NCBI GenBank assembly: GCA_016212105.1
Contig: JACRHJ010000034.1
Location: 23,581-87,580 of the forward strand
DNA length: 64,000 nt
From: Nitrospirota bacterium
GTDB lineage: Bacteria > Nitrospirota > JACRHJ01
Reading direction: 5' to 3'
Positions 7,971 through 17,568 of the stretch are shown here, piece after piece. The position numbers were made by a program, and so were the translations under genes. Each line of letters starts with the position of its first letter. The first letter of the stretch is position 1. The notes beneath the pieces are model-generated. The model was given only the letters and a program-made list of their open reading frames with translations. It was not told the origin of the DNA and did no database searches.

Positions 7971-8444
7971 ATGAAAACCATCCCGTACATCCTGCTTATC
8001 CTGTTGCTTGCCGTGTCCGCCGTGCTGCACGGGTGCGGCGGCGAGCAAACGGACGAGGACCTTATAAAGGCCGCCATACAGGAGATGGCCGAGGGCGCGG
8101 AGGCAAAGGACCTAGGCCGCGTCAAGGGGCACATCTCTGACGGCTACAAGGACCCGGCCGGCAACGACTACCAGGCGCTCAAGGGCATCATGGCGTTTTA
8201 CTTCATGCAGCCCGAGTCGATAAACGTCTTCCTGCGCAGGCAGGAGGTCGAGATACGGGACGGCAAGGGTTACGCGACGGTGCGCGCGGTAATTTCGCGC
8301 GGGGCAAAGGCGGAGAGCGTCACCGACCTCGTCCCGTCCGAGGCTGGCGGCTTCATCTTCGACTTCACCTTCGAGAAGGAGGGCGGCGACTGGATGCTGA
8401 CGTCCGCCATCTGGAGGCAGGTGGGGATGGCCGAGGCGTTATAA
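7971..8444 (+). CDS. Small lipoprotein, possible NTF2-like fold
   Basis: A 157-residue protein with a hydrophobic N-terminus and lipobox (AVLHGC). The mature part begins GGEQTDEDLIKAAIQEMAEGAE and runs through GHISDGYKDPAGNDYQALKGI and a beta-rich C-terminus, which is the order of elements in NTF2-like/DUF4440-type domains; this is a pattern judgement only. It resembles the lipoprotein at 1470 in length and layout. The gene ends convergently with the glycosyltransferase on the other strand with a 6-base overlap. The leader region is filled by a palindromic repeat (7913-7948). Confidence 0.65.
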   Translation: MKTIPYILLILLLAVSAVLHGCGGEQTDEDLIKAAIQEMAEGAEAKDLGRVKGHISDGYKDPAGNDYQALKGIMAFYFMQPESINVFLRRQEVEIRDGKGYATVRAVISRGAKAESVTDLVPSEAGGFIFDFTFEKEGGDWMLTSAIWRQVGMAEAL

Positions 8445-9113
8445 CTCCCTGTACCACATCGCAAGCCTCTCCGGCGGCACGCCCGCCATGTACCCGAGTA
8501 TCACCGCCTGGTTTATCAGCGTCGTCCTCAGGACGCCGAGCCTCTCCCACCGCCTCGCGGACGTGACCACGCTCGCGTGCGCGAGCTTGACCTGCCCGAA
8601 GCGGCCGACCCGGCGCATGAAGGCGAAGTCCTCCATGATGGGCATTACAGGGAATCCGCCCGCGACGCGGAACGTCCCGGCGAGGATGAATATCGCCTGG
8701 TCTCCGTAAGGCAGTCCGAACGCCCTGCTCCGGAAATTGGCGAGCCGCTCTATCAGGCGCAGCGCCGGGTGCTGGGATGCAACCTTCAGCCTGAACGCGC
8801 CCGCGACCACGTCCGGCCTGGTGAACATCCCGCGCACGTGCCGGTCGAACCCATCAGGGAGCGTCGTGTCCGCGTGCAGGAACACCAGCGCCTCGCCGGT
8901 CGCGGCCTTCGCCCCGGCGTTCATCTGCGCCGCGCGGCCCCCGGATGCGGTGACGACCTCCGCGCCGCACTCGCGCGCGATGCGCGCCGTCCCGTCGGCG
9001 CTGCCGCCGTCCGCGACTATTACCTCGACGCCGGGCGTCCGCCGCGCGCGGCGCACCGCGCGGGCGATGTACGCCGCCTCGTTTAGGGTGGGTATTATGA
9101 TGGATATTCGCAT
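8439..9113 (-). CDS. TIGR04283-type family 2 glycosyltransferase (arsenosugar-type)
   Basis: A 224-residue GT-A glycosyltransferase. Start at ATG 9113, directly before the first strand (MRISIIIPTLNEA). Motifs: VIVADGGSADGT, GRAAQMNAGAKAATGEALVFLHADTTLP (the DXD-like acid is HAD), and GFPVMPIMEDFAFMRRV near the C-terminus. The GGRAAQMNAGA and IMEDFAF signatures are those of the TIGR04283 group, which is often found with arsenosugar genes. The flavoprotein and ArsS genes on the same strand upstream support that context. The donor and acceptor are unproven. Confidence 0.85.
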   Translation of the reverse strand: MRISIIIPTLNEAAYIARAVRRARRTPGVEVIVADGGSADGTARIARECGAEVVTASGGRAAQMNAGAKAATGEALVFLHADTTLPDGFDRHVRGMFTRPDVVAGAFRLKVASQHPALRLIERLANFRSRAFGLPYGDQAIFILAGTFRVAGGFPVMPIMEDFAFMRRVGRFGQVKLAHASVVTSARRWERLGVLRTTLINQAVILGYMAGVPPERLAMWYREL

Positions 9114-9186
9114 AAGGCGTTGACCGTTGTGATACAATTAAGCCGACGGATAAATATCCGGACGTCCTCGTCTGTATTACGCGCAT

Positions 9187-9299
9187 TCAAGGGGGCGCGG
9201 CCCCCTTGCACCCCCAGACAAGGGGGAAACGTTCCCCCTTGCATCCCCTCGATCCTGTTAGGATGGAAGCCAAATCATGGCGAGCTTCGCCCGCCGGAT
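9187..9299 (-). repeat. Dispersed ~113-bp repeat (long family), copy 2 of 3
   Basis: Inverted copy of the element at 6796-6908: it reads TCAAGGGGGCGCGGCCCCCT at its left end and finishes CGAGCTTCGCCCGCCGGAT on the right. It fills the gap between the glycosyltransferase start and the flavoprotein stop. The central palindrome AAGGGGGAAACGTTCCCCCTT is conserved. Confidence 0.8.
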
Positions 9300-9325
9300 T
9301 TAAAACAACCTGGCCACAACCAGCC

Positions 9326-10855
9326 TCACCGCATCCTCTCCAGCCACCGGGCAACCCACTTCTTTACCCGAGGCGTAAGCCGCGTCCGGTTGTACATGTC
9401 CGCTACGTGCTTTATGCCTTCGGCCATCGTGGGGTACGGCTGTATGACGTCCGCGAGCGCGCCGAGACCGATGCCCCTGGATATGGCGAGCGTCAGCTCG
9501 CCCAGCATGTCGCCCGCGGACTGTGCGACTATGGTCGCGCCGAGTATCCTGTCCGAACCCTTTACGACGTGTACCTTGACGAAGCCCTCCTCGCGTCCTT
9601 CGAGCACCGCACGGTCCACGTCCGAATACCGCCTGACGAACGTCTCGACCTCGATGCCCTGACGCCGGGCCTCGTCCTCGTACAGCCCGACATGCGCGAC
9701 CTCCGGGTCTGTGAACGTGCACCACGGCACGGTAACGTCCGAGAGCTTCTTCCGCCCCTTGAACAGCGCGTTCTGTATGACGATCCGCGCGGCCGCATCC
9801 GCCATGTGCGTGAACTTGTACCTGCCGCACACGTCGCCCGCTGCGAAGACGTCCGTGTTCGTGGTACGCAGGTGGTCGTCCGCGAACACTCCGGAACGCG
9901 GGTCGTACCGGACGCCCGCGGCGTCGAGGCCGAGCCCGTCGACGTTCGGGACGCGTCCGACGGACACCAGCACCTGGTCGGCCGCTATGACCCGCTCCTC
10001 CTCGCCCCTGAACATGTGGAGCAGCTTCTCGCCGCCTCGCGTCTCTACCCTTCTCAAAGTCCAGTCGCCGTAGATAACACTAATGCCCTCGCGGGAGAAT
10101 ACCGCCTCGACTACCTTCGATGCGTCCGGGTCCTCCTTGTCCATGAGACGGGTGGACCTGTGGAGTATCGTGACCTCCGAGCCGAGCCGGGCAAAGGCCT
10201 GCGCCATCTCGCAGCCTATCGCCCCGCCCCCGAGGACGGCGAGCCGCTTCGGAAGTACCGTAAGGTTGAATATGTTCTCGTTCGTCAGGTAGCCGCACCC
10301 GGCGAGCCCCTCGACCGGTGGCATCAGCGGGTGCGCCCCGGTCGCTATAACCGCCTTCCGGAACCTCAGCGTCCTGCCGCCGGCCTCAACCATGTGGTGT
10401 CCGGTGAATACGCCCGCGCCGAGGAATACGTCCACGCCAAGCTCCCGGAACCGGGCCGCCGAGTCGTTCCGGCTTATCCGCGCGCGTAGCCTGCGCATCC
10501 GCTCCATCACGACGGGAAAGTCCGCGTCCGCGCCGCACAGGACGCGTATGCCGTGCCCGCCCGCGTCCTTCACCCCCTCCATGACGCGCGACGAGCTGAT
10601 GATGGTCTTGGACGGGACGCAGCCGAGGTTCAGGCAGTCCCCGCCCATCATACGTTTCTCAACCAGCGCGACCTTTGCGCCGAGCCCCGCCGCGCCCGCC
10701 GCCGCGACCAGCCCGGCCGTACCCGCGCCTATCACAACGAGGTTGTAGACCGGCGCGGGCTCCGGGTCCGTCCAGCCTTCCGGGCGGACGTTAGCCAGAA
10801 GCTCCCGGTCGTAGCGGTCGTCCGGGAGGATAACCTCTTGTTCTTTGTCGGGCAT
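9326..10855 (-). CDS. Mercuric-reductase-like FAD/NAD(P)-dependent disulfide oxidoreductase
   Basis: A 509-residue flavoprotein. Start ATG 10855 is chosen because AAGGAG lies just upstream; the frame extends ten codons further. It has the FAD-binding motif (NLVVIGAGTAGLVAAAGAAG), the redox-active cysteine pair (GGDCLNLGCVPSK), the NAD-binding motif (LAVLGGGAIGCEMAQAFARLG), the second FAD motif (TNTDVFAAGDV) and the dimerisation domain. It lacks an N-terminal HMA domain and a C-terminal vicinal Cys pair, so it is not a classical MerA. Such proteins are common beside ArsS and TIGR04283 genes. The electron acceptor is unknown. Confidence 0.85.
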   Translation of the reverse strand: MPDKEQEVILPDDRYDRELLANVRPEGWTDPEPAPVYNLVVIGAGTAGLVAAAGAAGLGAKVALVEKRMMGGDCLNLGCVPSKTIISSSRVMEGVKDAGGHGIRVLCGADADFPVVMERMRRLRARISRNDSAARFRELGVDVFLGAGVFTGHHMVEAGGRTLRFRKAVIATGAHPLMPPVEGLAGCGYLTNENIFNLTVLPKRLAVLGGGAIGCEMAQAFARLGSEVTILHRSTRLMDKEDPDASKVVEAVFSREGISVIYGDWTLRRVETRGGEKLLHMFRGEEERVIAADQVLVSVGRVPNVDGLGLDAAGVRYDPRSGVFADDHLRTTNTDVFAAGDVCGRYKFTHMADAAARIVIQNALFKGRKKLSDVTVPWCTFTDPEVAHVGLYEDEARRQGIEVETFVRRYSDVDRAVLEGREEGFVKVHVVKGSDRILGATIVAQSAGDMLGELTLAISRGIGLGALADVIQPYPTMAEGIKHVADMYNRTRLTPRVKKWVARWLERMR

Positions 10856-11132
10856 GGGGCTCCTTAAAGACAAAGTCAACTGCAAGGTCCCGCCTTTTTG
10901 GAAAAAGGCGGCCCAAAAACTTTCAATAGGTAGGGGCCGACCCGCGTGTCGGCCCTTGCATTTGCTTTTACGGTGTCATTCTGAGCGAAGCGAAGAATCT
11001 GCCTGTATATAATAATATTGTAGGGGCGCAGTTCACTGCGCCCGCACATTATGTTGTCATTCCCGCCAGTTCGGCTTCGCTCAGAATGACACCGTTAAAA
11101 CCATGACAACGGAACTATGCCCGCCCCCACGT
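10856..11132. repeat. Repeat-rich gap between flavoprotein and ArsS genes
   Basis: Contains a CCCGCCTTTTT...AAAAAGGCGG palindrome (10886-10923; family with copies at 35724-35763, 48934-48974, 53724-53762 and 58341-58381), a GGGCCGACCC...GTCGGCCC palindrome (10931-10958), a TCATTCTGAGCGAAGCG element (10977-11003) and a GCGCAGTTCACTGCGC palindrome (about 11027-11043). No gene seen. Confidence 0.75.
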
Positions 11133-12086
11133 TTATACAAGCGCTCCCTTACACGACGAGCCGCAGCCCGCGGCGCAGCCGAAGCAGTGCTCGCCCGTCA
11201 CTATTCGCCGGCCGGAGAGCGCGTCCGCGTCGAAATCCCGGACGTGGCCGGGACAACCGTCCCCGACCGGCAGGCCGAGCGCGAGGTTGAAGTCGCAGTC
11301 GAACAGCGCCCCGTCCCACCGCACGCTGACCATGTCCCTGCACATGAGGCCATCGAGCGTGCCGGGGTTGAACGACTCCTTCAGAAGACGCAGGTATTCG
11401 CGGCCCTTCTCCTGCCTGCCGAGCCCGGCCCAGTAACGCCCTACCGGCATGTTGGTTATGGTGAAGAGCCGCGAGAAGGATATGCCGAACCGCGCGTCAA
11501 GCTCGCGCCGGTAGTCCGCCTCGAGCGCGGCCTGGCCGGGCGGCAGGAACGTCCCGCCGGGGTTGTACACGAGGTCGAGCGAAAGCGCCGGGTCGATGCC
11601 GTACCCGATGGAGTTCAGCCGCCTTATCGCCTCCACGCTCGTCTCGTACACGCCCTCGCCCCGCTGGCTCCGGACGTTCTCCTCCAGGTAGCAGGGCAGG
11701 GACGCGACAAGGCCGGCGCCGTGCTCACGGAGGAATCCGGGCAGGTCGGACTTGCCGGGCAGCATCATCGCGGTCAGGTTCGTACGCACCTGCACACGGA
11801 CTCCGAGGCCGGCTATAGTCTCGACGAACTCGCGGAAGAACGGGTTCAGCTCCGGCGCGCCGCCGGTCAAATCCACAAGCGACGGACGCGCCCTCCGCAC
11901 CGCATCCGCCACAAGGCCCATCGTATGCCGGTCCATGGACTCGGTGCGGATGGGCGAGGCCGAGACGTGGCAGTGCCTGCACTGCTGGTTGCACATCAGG
12001 CCGAGGTTCACCTGTATGGTGTCTATGCCCCTGCACCTAAGCACGGAGCCGGTGGCCTCCTCCACGCGCCCGTCGAAACTGTCCAT
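11133..12086 (-). CDS. arsS: Arsenosugar biosynthesis radical SAM protein ArsS
   Basis: A 317-residue radical SAM enzyme. Start ATG 12086 with AGGAG nine bases upstream; that ribosome site lies in the end of the preceding desaturase gene, so translation is likely coupled. The radical SAM cluster motif is CNQQCRHCH (residues about 33-41), followed by LVDLTGGAPELNPFF and the C-terminal DUF3641-type region with further cysteines (MCRDMVSV, DCDFN, GEHCFGCAAGCGSSC) that should hold auxiliary Fe-S clusters. In other bacteria ArsS attaches the ribose-type sugar to methylated arsenic. No ArsM methyltransferase is in the window. Confidence 0.88.
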   Translation of the reverse strand: MDSFDGRVEEATGSVLRCRGIDTIQVNLGLMCNQQCRHCHVSASPIRTESMDRHTMGLVADAVRRARPSLVDLTGGAPELNPFFREFVETIAGLGVRVQVRTNLTAMMLPGKSDLPGFLREHGAGLVASLPCYLEENVRSQRGEGVYETSVEAIRRLNSIGYGIDPALSLDLVYNPGGTFLPPGQAALEADYRRELDARFGISFSRLFTITNMPVGRYWAGLGRQEKGREYLRLLKESFNPGTLDGLMCRDMVSVRWDGALFDCDFNLALGLPVGDGCPGHVRDFDADALSGRRIVTGEHCFGCAAGCGSSCKGALV

Positions 12087-12091
12087 ATGGC

Positions 12092-12967
12092 TCACTCCTG
12101 AATTATGTCTGGGTCGGACGCGCCCGCCGGGCCTGGACGCGAAAGCGACTCGCCCCCGTCCGGACGCGTCCAGTACGCCCGTTGAACGGTAAATGGCATG
12201 GCGATGACCCGCCACAGCCGGTTGTCGTCCGCTCCGAGGTACGCCGGGACGCCGATGGTCACGGCGCCCTGCGGGACGGCAAGGTTCAGCGTGCCGAATA
12301 GCGCGTCCCACCAGCGGAACACGACGGAGTAGTTCGAGTTGGTCTCGGCGCGCACCGCCGAGTGGTGTATCCCGTGCATCCGGGGCGTGACGATGAAAAT
12401 GTTCAGGAGACGCTCCGCGCCGACCGGCAGGCGCAGGTTGCTGTGGTGCAGCGCGGTCCCGCATGTGAACACCGTCTGGTATACGAAGAACGTAAGCGGC
12501 GAGACGCCGATGACGAGTACCTGCGCCGCGCGGAAAGCGGTCGAGTACAGTATCTCGACGAAATGGAACCTGAACGAGGTCGTGACGTCCAGGTCAGGGT
12601 CTATGTGGTGCACGTTGTGGAACCGCCACAAAAGCGGCGCCTCGTGGTTCGCCCTGTGCCACCAGTAAAACGTCATGTCGAGGAGCAGGAAACCTGCCGC
12701 GAATCCGGGCCAGGTCGGAACAGACGCCCACCCGAGCAGGCCGAAGCGGGCCACCTGCGTCCATTCGAGAAGCCAGGCCGACGTCCCGGTCACGGCGTAC
12801 GAGCCCATTACGAAGACGGCAACGGTAAGCGCGAGGTTCACCGGCAGCCTCGAAATGAAAGTGCGCGTCCTCGTCCTGAGCGGGTACAGCCTCTCGATGA
12901 GGAAGAGGAGGGCGAATACGGCCGCGACAATATGCGGCGTGATGTCCTTGATGCCGGTGTCCGTCAT
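12092..12967 (-). CDS. Sterol desaturase / fatty acid hydroxylase superfamily protein
   Basis: A 291-residue integral membrane di-iron enzyme. Start taken at ATG 12967 (MTDTGIKD); no clear ribosome site, and the frame is open 26 codons further. It has about four transmembrane segments and the full histidine set: WWHRANHE, FHNVHHIDPD and MHGIHHSAVRAETN. Members hydroxylate or desaturate lipid alkyl chains with O2. It lies 5 bases upstream of arsS on the same strand, a link that is suggestive of lipid modification beside arsenosugar synthesis, but that is inference. A very short upstream AT-rich stretch may hold its promoter. Confidence 0.85.
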   Translation of the reverse strand: MTDTGIKDITPHIVAAVFALLFLIERLYPLRTRTRTFISRLPVNLALTVAVFVMGSYAVTGTSAWLLEWTQVARFGLLGWASVPTWPGFAAGFLLLDMTFYWWHRANHEAPLLWRFHNVHHIDPDLDVTTSFRFHFVEILYSTAFRAAQVLVIGVSPLTFFVYQTVFTCGTALHHSNLRLPVGAERLLNIFIVTPRMHGIHHSAVRAETNSNYSVVFRWWDALFGTLNLAVPQGAVTIGVPAYLGADDNRLWRVIAMPFTVQRAYWTRPDGGESLSRPGPAGASDPDIIQE

Positions 12968-13461: not shown

Positions 13462-13650
13462 TTATAGTCCACCAATGAAACACGTGCAATCGCTATGATC
13501 ATGATGGTCAGAATGCCTATCACTATAATTTGAATGGTTGGCGCAACAATACGAAATAGCTCGCTTCAAGGCTTTATTGTTAGTCAAATTTACATCGATT
13601 TCTTTCAGCTTGAGGATATCGTGAATTTCCGATAAGTTAGTATTCTCCAT
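13462..13650 (-). CDS. Small Cys/His-rich peptide, candidate RiPP precursor
   Basis: A 62-residue peptide. Start ATG 13650 with a strong AGGAGG upstream. It overlaps the end of the radical SAM gene by 14 bases. The N-terminal half is a plausible leader (MENTNLSEIHDILKLKEIDV, then LTNNKALKRAI); the C-terminal half is unusual: SYCCANHSNYSDRHSDHHDH followed by SDCTCFIGGL, with four Cys, six His and alternating His/Ser/Asp. That leader/core split and the position behind a radical SAM/SPASM enzyme suggest a ribosomally made, modified peptide. I do not recognise the family. It could alternatively be a metal-binding peptide. Confidence 0.6.
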   Translation of the reverse strand: MENTNLSEIHDILKLKEIDVNLTNNKALKRAISYCCANHSNYSDRHSDHHDHSDCTCFIGGL

Positions 13651-14782
13651 GGATGTTCCTCCTGTTAGTAAGCGCATCTATGTCAAGTTTCACTGCGTTG
13701 TATACATGCTGGTAGATTTTTTTAAACCCGTTGCAATTATTATCCGGAGCATAAATAGTGCCGAAATTAAGAAATGCTTCATACATGCATCCAGAAAAAC
13801 ATTTCAATTTTATATCGCATATTGAACAATCTGGTATGTTTCCAGGAACCCTTCTGATAAATTTATCAAATCTTCCTAAATCGTAGATATCTTGAAAGTT
13901 TTCTGAAGAAATGTTCCCTAATTTAAATAGATCGTTTGTTGTTGTTCGTCCGCATGTATAACAATCACCATTCGGAACAATTGTTAGATGTTTTGTGGAA
14001 CAATTGCTATTGTAACAAGAACCATAACCGCTCCCTTTTAAAACTAATGTCATCATTTGAAATAAGTTCTCAACCATTACTTCTTGGTTTTTATCATAAT
14101 ACCATGTATCGAATAATTTAATCAAAAAATCTGTATATTCATCAATCGTTGTTTCAAGGGTTTCACGATTTTTCAGAGCCCGTCCGTGATAAAAGATAGG
14201 GTTCGTCTTGAAATTCATATTAATTTCTGAAAAGAAATCATAGATTTCGTTAACGTAGTTCAATTTATCTTTAGTTATAATGCAAATGGCACCAAGTTTT
14301 AAGCCATGTGCCCTAGCTAAGCTAACATTGTTCAATACGATGGAGTGTATATCCTTACCAGGCGTTGCTCTGTTTTTGTTGTGCAAATTCTTAGGACCGT
14401 CAATTGATGTACTTAAAGATACGGAATGCTCACTAAATAATATAGCATATTCCTCATCCAGTAAGGTAAGATTTGTCTGTATCGCTATATCGAACGATTG
14501 ATTTTCAACCGCGCTTAATTTTGTTATGTAGCTAAGAAGTTTATCATAATACTTATGTCCTAAAAGAAGCGGCTCCCCTCCATGAAATGTTATATTAATT
14601 GCCCCATTCATGTCGTTGTGTTTTCTGTATGAGACTATCTTCTCGATAATCTCTTTGGACATTATTAAGTCTATTTTATTATTTGACGATAAATTATTGT
14701 CATCATGATAACAATAGTTACATCTTAGATTGCAATTCAGAGTGGTCTGTATTGTTATAAAATTTAGGGATGGTATTTGCAC
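13637..14782 (-). CDS. Radical SAM/SPASM enzyme, candidate peptide maturase
   Basis: A 381-residue protein starting at GTG 14782, three bases after the upstream gene. The radical SAM motif is CNLRCNYCYHDD (residues 16-27), followed by NITFHGGEPLLLGH. The C-terminal SPASM-like region has many cysteines: YGSCYNSNCSTKH, GDCYTCGRTTTN, DCSICDIKLKCFSGC and NNCNGF, enough for two auxiliary 4Fe-4S clusters. Length and layout match anaerobic sulfatase-maturase-like and peptide-modifying enzymes. Codon use is AT-rich, unlike the GC-rich neighbours, suggesting acquisition. The overlapping small peptide gene is the likely substrate (inference). Confidence 0.82.
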   Translation of the reverse strand: MQIPSLNFITIQTTLNCNLRCNYCYHDDNNLSSNNKIDLIMSKEIIEKIVSYRKHNDMNGAINITFHGGEPLLLGHKYYDKLLSYITKLSAVENQSFDIAIQTNLTLLDEEYAILFSEHSVSLSTSIDGPKNLHNKNRATPGKDIHSIVLNNVSLARAHGLKLGAICIITKDKLNYVNEIYDFFSEINMNFKTNPIFYHGRALKNRETLETTIDEYTDFLIKLFDTWYYDKNQEVMVENLFQMMTLVLKGSGYGSCYNSNCSTKHLTIVPNGDCYTCGRTTTNDLFKLGNISSENFQDIYDLGRFDKFIRRVPGNIPDCSICDIKLKCFSGCMYEAFLNFGTIYAPDNNCNGFKKIYQHVYNAVKLDIDALTNRRNIHGEY

Positions 14783-14785
14783 GGC

Positions 14786-15589
14786 TCACCTGTTTTTTCT
14801 GGAATCTGTTCTCTTCACGACCATTCTCGTTGAACTATGATCGGTTAAAGTCCTAAATTTAAATAACGACGTTTCAATTTCTGCAATGCCATCTATGGCT
14901 GACCAAAGAACAGGCAATGACAAGACTCTTTTAATGAAATCAACTTGCTCATTAAAACCAGCGCGGTTGCCGATTGCTAGTAGCTGTTCCCCTATATAAA
15001 TAGACTTTTCGCACTGGTGATTGCAAGGTAAGTGAAGAACACTCCGTAATCCTACCCCGCGTAGCATTACATTTGTTTCTAACGGGCCTTTAACAACGCA
15101 TCCATTATTATTTAATATAGCTCCATCAGTAGCGATAGACATTTGCCACGTAGTATCGATAAGCTTGTTTTCTTCCCAAAATATCTTAAAGAACGTTCGA
15201 CAGCATTTAGGATAACCTAATAAAGAACCTATTAACTCGTTATTATTATTTTCCCATGCGTCTTTGAATTCCGAGACATCATTGCTCGCGCCAATGGCGC
15301 AGAGGTAATTATACTGTTCTCCCGGCATTGGCCACTTAATTGAGGCCTGATATGATTGGCCTTTAGCTACTTTTGCAATAGGCAGGATTGAGATGCCATA
15401 ATTATCTACACGGCATGATAATTGTTTAATCCTTTCGACGTTTATAGTAGCTAAAGCGCACCGCCTCAAGCCGTAAGCAATCGAAAGCCATTCTATTTCC
15501 TGCCAAGCTAGTAGTGCTTGGGTTAATTGTGATTTCCAGTATGGATGTTCTCTTTCACATGATAGTGAGAAGTCTATGATGTGGGACAT
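14786..15589 (-). CDS. Unknown Cys-rich protein of the radical SAM island (DUF483-like motifs)
   Basis: A 267-residue protein, ATG 15589, AT-rich. No transmembrane segment. It carries two cysteine signatures: SLLGYPKCCRTFF (about residues 123-135) and LHLPCNHQCEKS (about 182-193), plus an isolated NNNGCVVKGPLE. The GYP-CC-FF / PC-C pairing resembles what I recall of DUF483-type proteins, but I cannot check this. The stop is within the ribosome site of the radical SAM gene, so translation is coupled. It may be a partner that binds peptide or an additional metal centre; no activity can be assigned. Confidence 0.65.
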   Translation of the reverse strand: MSHIIDFSLSCEREHPYWKSQLTQALLAWQEIEWLSIAYGLRRCALATINVERIKQLSCRVDNYGISILPIAKVAKGQSYQASIKWPMPGEQYNYLCAIGASNDVSEFKDAWENNNNELIGSLLGYPKCCRTFFKIFWEENKLIDTTWQMSIATDGAILNNNGCVVKGPLETNVMLRGVGLRSVLHLPCNHQCEKSIYIGEQLLAIGNRAGFNEQVDFIKRVLSLPVLWSAIDGIAEIETSLFKFRTLTDHSSTRMVVKRTDSRKNR

Positions 15590-15603
15590 AACCCTACTTT
15601 GGC

Positions 15604-15631
15604 ATTATATTGTTATTTGACTCTATGTCAA
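15604..15631 (-). promoter_or_regulatory. Consensus sigma-70 promoter of the radical SAM/RiPP-like island
   Basis: On the minus strand TTGACA (15631-15626) and TATAAT (15609-15604) both match consensus exactly with a 16-base spacer. The predicted transcription start is only about eight bases before the ATG at 15589, so the first gene would have a very short leader. Confidence 0.7.
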
Positions 15632-16843: not shown

Positions 16844-16996
16844 GTCTGCCTCATGGGGTGTGGTTTCGGGCCTCTTCGCGTATAAATATAACACGGAGCG
16901 GGCCGGAAGCAAAAGGATAATTGTTGACAAGCGGGCGTCGATGTCATAACCTAAAATATGTAAGATGTCAGCACAGGTTGCATTATGGAGGTTAAC

Positions 16997-17290
16997 ATGG
17001 CGGGGTCGGCCACCAGGCACAGGGTAGAGGGCATCGGAAGGGTTGTCCCGCTTTCCGGGCTCAAGAAAGATATCCTCAACATCGTCACGGAGGTATCGGA
17101 GTTCGACGAGAAGGTGACGATTACAAAGGACGGCGAACCGGCGGTAGTCATGGTGAACGCCGAGTATTACGAAGGGCTCATCGAGACGCTGGAGATACTT
17201 TCGGACAAGAAGTCCGTATCGGGTATAAGGCAGTCCCTCAAGGACATCCGGGAGGGGAAGGTCCAGACGCTTGACGAGGTGTTCGGGTGA
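16997..17290 (+). CDS. Phd/YefM-family antitoxin
   Basis: A 97-residue protein. Start ATG 16997 with GGAGG upstream; the ATG at 16985 overlaps that site. It has the Phd/YefM fold marks: VVPLSGLKKDILNIVTEVSE, FDEKVTITKDGEPAVVMVNAEYYEGL, followed by a C-terminal helix (LEILSDKKSVSGIRQSLKDI) that would wrap the toxin. In the family the N-terminal domain binds the operon operator and represses it. It overlaps the toxin start by four bases (GTGA). Confidence 0.88.
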   Translation: MAGSATRHRVEGIGRVVPLSGLKKDILNIVTEVSEFDEKVTITKDGEPAVVMVNAEYYEGLIETLEILSDKKSVSGIRQSLKDIREGKVQTLDEVFG

Positions 17291-17568
17291 GGGTACTCAT
17301 CGCCGAGCACGCAGCGAAGCAGATAAAGAAACTCGACCAGCCTCTCAAGGACCGGCTGAAAAAAGCCGTCATACACATCTCGGAAAACCCGTCCATTGGC
17401 AAGTTCCTCGAAGACGAGCTCAAAGGCCTTCAGTCATACAGGTTCAGCAAGTACCGTATCATCTATTAGTTCCAGAAGAAAGAAGACGTGCTCTACGTGG
17501 TCTGGTTCGGCCACAGGGCGGACGTTTACGACGAAGTCGAGAAGGCGCTCAAAGACCACAGGTCATAG
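17287..17568 (+). pseudogene. RelE/ParE-family toxin interrupted by an in-frame amber codon
   Basis: Starts at GTG 17287 overlapping the antitoxin stop. The first 60 residues are a normal RelE/ParE beginning (RVLIAEHAAKQIKKLDQPLK ... FSKYRIIY). A TAG at 17467-17469 then stops the frame, but the same frame continues with FQKKEDVLYVVWFGHRADVY, the conserved C-terminal strands with the family's GHR-DVY ending, to a second TAG at 17566. One base change (for example CAG or GAG to TAG) explains this. The short product lacks the C-terminal active-site region, so the toxin is probably dead; readthrough is possible but unsupported. deoB starts on the next base. Confidence 0.8.

What the first reader, a model, noticed from the sequence alone, without database searches (positions are those of the whole stretch)
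13462..15631. AT-rich candidate RiPP cluster with an unusual Cys/His/Ser-rich precursor
Seen: three coupled minus-strand genes, clearly more AT-rich than both neighbours, with overlaps or 3-base gaps: a 267-residue Cys-rich protein (GYPKCC...LPCNHQC), a radical SAM/SPASM enzyme (CNLRCNYCY plus a Cys-rich tail) and a 62-residue peptide that splits into an ordinary leader and a core with four Cys and six His alternating with Ser/Asp (NHSNYSDRHSDHHDHSDCTC). Known: radical SAM/SPASM enzymes beside short peptides commonly install thioether or carbon crosslinks. Inference: a RiPP or modified metal-binding peptide of a class I do not recognise. The missing exporter and protease suggest a product kept in the cell or one matured elsewhere.
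Basis: partly seen in the sequence, partly recalled or inferred. Interest (0 to 1): 0.78.

Follow-up and report, generated by a model that had tools for sequence, protein, structure and literature searches.

The report
Predicted cross-linked His-X-Asp repeat peptide
Three AT-rich genes encode a 62-residue peptide with five His/Tyr-X-Asp/Asn triplets, a radical SAM enzyme that would likely cross-link each triplet into a small ring, and a partner protein whose relatives sit in many viral DNA fragments beside a radical SAM enzyme and much longer arrays of the same triplet.

Summary
An AT-rich island (36% G+C; rest of window 62%) carries a DUF483-like protein, a radical SAM/SPASM enzyme and a 62-residue peptide whose core reads HSN-YSD-R-HSD-HHD-HSD-CTC: five [His/Tyr]-X-[Asp/Asn] triplets (shuffle P about 2e-4; 0 of 13,759 control ORFs). 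The peptide has no detected homologue, but the gene set recurs. The partner is up to 35% identical to viral proteins. Of 80 viral loci fetched by the phage-type radical SAM enzyme, 73 carry the partner, 69 an ORF packed with [His/Tyr/Phe/Trp]-X-[Asp/Asn], 67 both; of 80 genome and 35 viral control loci, none carries either. The array is specific to spacing i to i+2. One archaeal genome has two cassettes, one with His-X-Asp and one with Tyr-X-Asp repeats. Spacing, His/Tyr interchange and Asp/Asn acceptor match three-residue cyclophanes (triceptides). I conclude: very likely a RiPP-type modification cassette; cyclophane formation is the likeliest chemistry (inferred, untested). New is the DUF483-like partner, seen with at least three radical SAM lineages. 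Against: the window's enzyme lies outside the viral clade and reaches no curated cyclophane cut-off. A 2024 paper noted the phage module but suggested DNA modification.

The parts
14786..15589 (-). 267-aa DUF483-like partner protein with YPKCC and LPCNHQC motifs (C129, C130, C189, C193)
   Evidence: weak PF04467 match (17.5 bits, cut-off 25); one database homologue P0002 at 24%; viral homologues up to 35% over 247 aa; confident AlphaFold2 model, mean pLDDT 92.7
13637..14782 (-). 381-aa radical SAM/SPASM enzyme (CNLRCNYC and a Cys-rich SPASM tail)
   Evidence: Pfam Radical_SAM and SPASM above cut-off; NCBIfam peptide-maturase and sulfatase-maturase models match below their cut-offs, best DynA 229.7 of 450 bits; own clade with metagenome relatives
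13462..13650 (-). 62-aa candidate precursor peptide
   Evidence: AGGAGG before the ATG; no homologue at E <= 1 other than itself; no family in NCBIfam or PHROGs and no Pfam family above cut-off
13489..13536 (-). core triplets HSN-YSD-R-HSD-HHD-HSD, residues 39-54, predicted cross-linking sites
13543..13650 (-). predicted leader, residues 1-36 (boundary is a guess)
   Evidence: sequence only

Best explanation
The island is very likely a RiPP-type modification cassette in which the radical SAM/SPASM enzyme is predicted to join the ring of each His or Tyr to the beta-carbon of the Asp or Asn two residues on, turning the HSN-YSD-R-HSD-HHD-HSD core into a chain of up to five three-residue cyclophanes. 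The DUF483-like protein is inferred to be the enzyme's dedicated partner, probably metal-binding through its conserved CC...C/H...C residues, that presents the repeat substrate or finishes the product. Shown by sequence: the triplets, their spacing, the recurrence of enzyme plus partner beside repeat-rich proteins, and the viral relatives of the partner. Inferred: the cross-link chemistry, the partner's role, cleavage of the leader and the biological use. The four Cys may add metal binding or a further link.
For: (1) Five [HY]-X-[DN] triplets, beyond chance. (2) The partner family lies beside a radical SAM enzyme in an unnamed same-phylum genome (G211, L125), Paracoccus yeei plasmids (three of four records read), two haloarchaeal plasmids, three Thermus phages, an archaeal genome with two cassettes (G902) and a genome in the phylum of an Acidobacteria MAG (G1361). 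(3) Of 80 viral loci fetched by the A6 enzyme alignment (best 80 of 147), all 80 have the enzyme, 73 the partner, 69 a repeat-rich ORF, 67 both; controls 0 of 80 genome loci and 0 of 35 viral loci for partner and for array. (4) The array is specific to i, i+2: 69 loci, against 1 (i+1), 0 (i+3), 0 (i+4). (5) G902 has one cassette with Tyr-X-Asp and one with His-X-Asp repeats; viral cores also use Phe and Trp in first place. (6) A review describes triceptide cross-links between i and i+2, including Tyr C3 to Asp C-beta (YxdB) and His C2 to Ala or Arg C-beta (HaaB, YhhB) (PMC11002830, passages). (7) The enzyme's NCBIfam matches are peptide maturases, cyclophane formers among them, and sulfatase maturases; the solved ChlB radical SAM domain matches at 2.4e-13, and ChlB is called a multiple cyclophane synthase in a reference title. 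(8) The G211 cassette has an aKG-HExxH enzyme above cut-off, and the P. yeei ones a gene annotated so; such an enzyme hydroxylates Asp and His after cyclophane formation (PMC12636437, passages).
Against: No chemistry was tested. The window's enzyme is not in the viral/haloarchaeal clade; its closest solved relative is an anaerobic sulfatase-maturating enzyme (1.7e-37) and its second-best NCBIfam match is the sulfatase maturase, so the same reaction is inferred from partner and motif. No curated cyclophane model reaches its cut-off, and the best model for the G211 enzyme is PapB, a ranthipeptide (thioether) maturase (165.7 of 340 bits). The neighbourhoods of the close metagenome relatives P0005-P0025 could not be read, so the window is the only locus of its enzyme clade with a known partner. 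Four of five viral partner proteins scanned match methyltransferase models at the C-terminus, one of them above a cut-off, which hints at methylation. Three proteins with weak partner-profile matches (G659, G793, G900) have no radical SAM match in the fetched stretches. I saw no repeat-rich ORF beside the Halorussus cassette. The G1361 tail is HDRD/HDRE rather than H-X-D, and the G211/P. yeei repeats have only short His/Phe-X-Asn motifs.
Confidence: 0.55

Rival explanations
1. A RiPP-type cassette with another radical SAM reaction on the triplets or Cys: thioether (sacti- or ranthipeptide), epimerisation, or links followed by methylation or hydroxylation.
For: The peptide has four Cys flanking the triplets; PapB (ranthipeptide) matches the window enzyme at 130.5 of 340 bits and is the best model for the G211 enzyme (165.7); four of five viral partner proteins match methyltransferase models, mostly below cut-off.
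Against: Cys is rare inside the viral triplets (13 of 2,334 middle residues), so Cys is not the shared target; the i to i+2 aromatic-to-Asp spacing has no known role in thioether or epimerase chemistry (recalled).
Confidence: 0.25
2. The peptide is an unmodified or hardly modified metal-binding (Cu, Zn or Ni) His/Cys peptide, and the enzyme acts on something else.
For: His/Asp/Cys-rich core; alternating His and Asp is a plausible metal ligand array (recalled, not tested).
Against: Peptide and enzyme genes overlap; repeat ORFs accompany the phage-type enzyme in 69 of 80 viral loci and 0 of 115 control loci; one cassette of G902 uses Tyr-X-Asp, which is no usual metal motif; phiLo and Cumys enzymes carry the repeats as their own C-terminal tail.
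Confidence: 0.1
3. The radical SAM plus DUF483 module modifies nucleic acid, as proposed for the Thermus phage module.
For: Authors of PMC11437467 suggest an unknown DNA modification; cyanobacterial homologues lie near deazapurine genes (passages read); methyltransferase-like fusions.
Against: The adjacent protein in Cumys and phiMa is itself a long His-X-Asp array, and such arrays, strong or weaker, accompany 74 of 80 viral cassettes, the other six lying at contig ends; the enzyme matches peptide-maturase models.
Confidence: 0.05
4. The 62-aa frame is not expressed and the other two genes are a decaying foreign fragment.
For: No detected homologue of the peptide; AT-rich foreign-looking island; the five other genomes of the family lack enzyme and partner at the thresholds used.
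Against: Intact frames, AGGAGG before the ATG, overlap with the enzyme gene and a core that repeats the substrate motif of the module.
Confidence: 0.05

Closest known systems
Triceptides / three-residue cyclophane-forming enzymes (XncB, OscB, MscB, YxdB, HaaB, YhhB)
   Same: Radical SAM/SPASM enzyme beside a ribosomal substrate with aromatic-X-acceptor motifs at i and i+2; Tyr-to-Asp known for YxdB, His as ring donor known for HaaB and YhhB (PMC11002830, passages).
   Different: DUF483-like partner; His-X-Asp arrays (five triplets here, up to 97 H-X-[DN] counted in one viral ORF); no NCBIfam cyclophane model reaches its cut-off; no cross-link shown.
Thermus phage Cumys/phiMa 'rSAM module' (PMC11437467)
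   Same: Radical SAM protein plus DUF483 protein plus a third protein of unknown function (passages).
   Different: Published as a possible DNA-modification locus; here the neighbouring protein is seen to be a His-X-Asp repeat protein, the module is counted in viral contigs, and the window has a 62-aa version with a different radical SAM lineage.
Dynobactin maturase DynA
   Same: Best NCBIfam match of the window's enzyme over nearly its whole length (229.7 bits).
   Different: Below the curated cut-off of 450; substrate and partner differ.
Anaerobic sulfatase-maturating enzyme
   Same: Closest solved relative (4k37, 1.7e-37) and second NCBIfam match (186.4 bits).
   Different: Below the curated cut-off of 349.45; no sulfatase named among the neighbours scanned.
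His-Xaa-Ser (Hxs) system
   Same: Radical SAM/SPASM maturase and a His/Ser-containing substrate; HxsB model matches at 140.8 bits.
   Different: Cut-off 370 not reached; the repeated triplet here ends in Asp/Asn, not Ser; one radical SAM gene in the island.

Membership tests
RiPP (ribosomal peptide with dedicated modifying enzyme) | Short precursor gene coupled to a peptide-modifying enzyme gene | tested here: met
   62-aa frame overlapping a radical SAM/SPASM gene
RiPP (ribosomal peptide with dedicated modifying enzyme) | Modified product demonstrated | not testable with these tools
   needs mass spectrometry
RiPP (ribosomal peptide with dedicated modifying enzyme) | Conserved leader with variable core among homologues | tested here: inconclusive
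   no homologue of the peptide found
Triceptides | Radical SAM enzyme with SPASM domain | tested here: met
   PF04055 and PF13186 above cut-off
Triceptides | Aromatic-X-acceptor motif with donor at i and acceptor at i+2 | tested here: met
   five triplets in the peptide; i+2-specific arrays in viral cassettes
Triceptides | Enzyme reaches the cut-off of a curated cyclophane-former model (GrrM/OscB, XyeB, FxsB, YhhB, AmcB) | tested here: not met
   119.1 of 310, 76.2 of 450, 95.1 of 370, 120.6 of 445, 112 of 425 bits; these models name subfamilies, not the whole class
Triceptides | C-C cross-link shown by NMR or MS | not testable with these tools
   bench experiment
Pfam DUF483 (PF04467) | Reaches the gathering score | tested here: not met
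   17.5 of 25 bits; P0002 20.5; I therefore write DUF483-like
His-Xaa-Ser system | HxsB cut-off | tested here: not met
   140.8 of 370 bits
Anaerobic sulfatase maturase | TIGR03942 cut-off | tested here: not met
   186.4 of 349.45 bits
Phage rSAM-DUF483 module | Radical SAM gene plus partner plus repeat protein | tested here: met
   order partner-enzyme-peptide in the window; partner homologous to viral partners at up to 35%
Phage rSAM-DUF483 module | Radical SAM enzyme of the viral/haloarchaeal clade | tested here: not met
   window enzyme lies in its own clade, 100/99; viral/haloarchaeal clade 100/100

The most novel reading that the evidence does not exclude
A phage-borne protein-modification system: radical SAM enzymes, each with a DUF483-like partner, weld dozens of His/Tyr-X-Asp triplets into a rigid chain of side-chain rings along tail-associated proteins. 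Bacteria and archaea carry trimmed-down versions, and the window's 62-residue peptide with five triplets and four Cys is the smallest intact one seen here.
Probability: 0.45. Interest if true: 0.9.

Novelty: new variant of a known kind. Interest (0 to 1): 0.8.

Why it matters
If right, it gives DUF483-like proteins a role (partner of peptide-cross-linking radical SAM enzymes), gives the published but unexplained Thermus phage rSAM module a protein substrate instead of DNA, and suggests that phages decorate tail-associated proteins with poly-cyclophane stretches. I found no such virion modification in the listings of nine literature searches of the open-licence library. The window's peptide is the smallest intact substrate found here and so the easiest one with which to test the chemistry.
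Full report
What is there. The island at 13462-15589 holds three minus-strand genes. In transcription order they are a 267-aa protein, a 381-aa radical SAM/SPASM enzyme and a 62-aa peptide. Its G+C is 0.363 against 0.615 for the rest of the window. The genes nearly touch or overlap, and the peptide start has an AGGAGG. The upstream neighbour is a GNAT protein and the downstream one a UPF0150-like protein, with G+C of 0.59 and 0.62.

The peptide. Residues 39-54 read HSN-YSD-R-HSD-HHD-HSD, followed by CTC: five non-overlapping [His/Tyr]-X-[Asp/Asn] triplets. Shuffling the core reaches five with P = 0.00019; shuffling the whole peptide, with P = 0.0048. No other ORF of 834 in the window, and none of 13,759 in 115 control loci, has five within 20 residues. 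The peptide has no homologue at E <= 1 but itself; that search needs shared five-residue words and is weak for so short a query.

The partner. The 267-aa protein had one database relative, P0002, at 24%, and a sub-threshold match to DUF483. A profile of the two found, among 395 genomes, G211 of the same phylum. There a partner homologue lies between a 235-aa protein with repeats of HVNSGPPGFVNGGGHANFDP and a radical SAM enzyme, followed by an aKG-HExxH enzyme, a 2OG-oxygenase-like protein (sub-threshold) and a TPR protein. Tblastn of P0002 found the same gene order on Paracoccus yeei plasmids (three of four records read) and enzyme-partner pairs on two haloarchaeal plasmids. In Halomicrococcus the preceding 206-aa protein ends in a His/Tyr-Ser/Thr-Asp array containing NHSNY and HSDH, which also occur in the window's core. 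Three Thermus phages carry the pair; in Cumys and phiMa the preceding protein holds about 240 residues of His-X-Asp, and phiLo has a repeat protein with 75 H-X-[DN] about 3 kb away on the other strand. The Cumys and phiLo enzymes have the triplets on their own C-terminal tail.

Systematic count. Alignment A6 (five phage and haloarchaeal enzymes) fetched 80 viral loci (best of 147). I scored all 80: enzyme in 80, partner in 73 (A4 or A5 profile over 25 bits), an ORF with at least 12 [HYFW]-X-[DN] per 80 residues in 69, both in 67. Control loci of other radical SAM relatives: 0 of 80 (genomes) and 0 of 35 (viral) for partner and for array; only 2 of those 35 pass my enzyme threshold of 60 bits, so the 80 genome loci are the better control. 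The thresholds are mine. A6 was chosen because its members stand next to the partner, so a high partner count is expected; the loci were not selected on the array, though four of the five seeds have one (L131, L132 and L126 beside the enzyme, L133 on the enzyme tail and in a nearby gene). The 80 include near copies; 60 enzymes differ by more than about 10%. The seven loci without a partner hit are L272, L274, L292, L322, L328, L334 and L337. Of the 11 loci below the array threshold, five have weaker arrays (L258, L278, L279, L290, L327), and in six the cassette lies close to the end of the contig (L272, L274, L276, L292, L328, L337), so the substrate gene may be cut off. The order is array-enzyme-partner in 55 of 67, array-partner-enzyme in 11, other in 1. 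A second set of 14 viral loci, fetched by partner alignment A5, has the enzyme and partner in 14 and an array in 13; it overlaps the first.

Spacing. In the same 80 loci the array test at i+1, i+3 and i+4 gives 1, 0 and 0 loci, against 69 at i+2. In 62 distinct repeat regions (12,160 residues) His to Asp/Asn at +2 occurs 2,014 times against 502 in shuffles; +3 and +4 are at 0.26 and 0.20 of shuffled. The first position is H 2,014, Y 150, F 141, W 29; the third D 2,004, N 330. These regions were chosen by i+2 density, so the height of that peak is partly by construction; the test of other spacings is the fairer control.

Donor interchange. G1361, in the phylum of an Acidobacteria MAG, has an enzyme with two partners and an upstream protein ending in HDRD/HDRE repeats, which read as His-X-Arg triplets only if one allows Arg as acceptor.

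Phage setting. PHROGs places tail proteins upstream of two cassettes (L338 central tail fiber J, 304 bits; L300 tail, 35 bits; two loci were scanned), and Cumys and Halomicrococcus have baseplate genes nearby. In 53 of the 80 loci the repeat protein also has a GS-X-W type motif, in the examples printed part of a short repeat in front of the array. That the repeat protein is a virion part is inferred from position.

Enzymes. The window's enzyme and 15 metagenome relatives form one clade (100/99), the viral/haloarchaeal enzymes another (100/100), and G211, P. yeei and G1361 a third, weaker group (91/60; G211 with P. yeei 100/100), in a tree of 52 chosen sequences. The partner thus occurs with at least three enzyme lineages, in the first of them so far only in the window. 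The close metagenome relatives of the window enzyme (41-60% identity, some of them fragments) could not be read in context. The closest solved enzyme is an anaerobic sulfatase-maturating enzyme (1.7e-37), then a thioether former (5wgg, 8.3e-16; its function recalled) and ChlB (2.4e-13).

The partner's nature. In 34 sequences P127, C129, C130, D145 and C193 are invariant and C189 nearly so; Thermus phages and L258 have His at 189. AlphaFold2 gives a confident model (mean pLDDT 92.7, pTM 0.89), but fold searches gave no significant match. Four of five viral partners scanned match methyltransferase models at the C-terminus, one (L306) above a cut-off; the window protein is shorter and has no such match. 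In a quick tree of 75 partner sequences the window protein falls among viral ones without a supported place.

Mechanism. Radical SAM/SPASM enzymes that link an aromatic residue to the beta-carbon of residue i+2 are known; reported pairs include Tyr-Asp, His-Ala, His-Arg, Tyr-Arg and Trp-Asn/Asp (PMC11002830, passages). The donor set, the i+2 spacing and the Asp/Asn acceptor seen here fit that reaction better than thioether or metal-only readings. The aKG-HExxH gene in the G211 and P. yeei cassettes fits too, since such an enzyme acts on Asp and His after cyclophane formation (PMC12636437, passages). His-to-Asp linkage itself is not in the passages I read. So: RiPP-type cassette very likely; cyclophane chemistry likeliest; partner role inferred.

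What is in print. PMC11437467 (passages read) describes the radical SAM plus DUF483 module of Cumys and phiMa, notes prophage and cyanobacterial relatives and suggests DNA modification; the passages do not mention the His-X-Asp composition of a neighbouring protein. The search for DUF483 lists seven papers; in the one other that I opened, the passages hold longer DUF numbers only. Searches for cyclophane or triceptide with phage, Thermus phage with radical SAM and His-X-Asp with radical SAM listed nothing else that describes this system; I judged by titles and abstract starts.

Noticed in passing
window 8439-12464: Minus-strand genes for a group 2 glycosyltransferase, a pyridine-nucleotide-disulphide oxidoreductase and a DUF3641 radical SAM protein; from memory this resembles an arsenosugar-type (ArsS) neighbourhood.
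   Followed up: partly
window 16985-17469: A Phd/YefM-type antitoxin gene followed by a ParE-like toxin gene, just beyond the GNAT gene.
   Followed up: no
L353 2531-4276; L126 2058-3674; L131 2376-2669: Genes just upstream of the repeat proteins end in a similar short tail (VPNGTNQWVGA, LPVGTDRWA, LPVGTDRWAP). Possibly an attachment or docking motif.
   Followed up: no
L131 3719-4969 and L133 3424-4872: The phage radical SAM enzymes themselves end in His/Tyr-X-Asp triplets (HGDYTDHGDAPHGDHWDG in Cumys), as if enzyme and substrate were partly fused.
   Followed up: partly
L309 8834-10629; L415 7231-9377: Two partner genes in tandem beside the enzyme; the second copy in L415 starts with what looks by eye like a signal sequence.
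   Followed up: no
L125 12333-15998: A 1,221-aa ORF near the G211 cassette, not identified.
   Followed up: no
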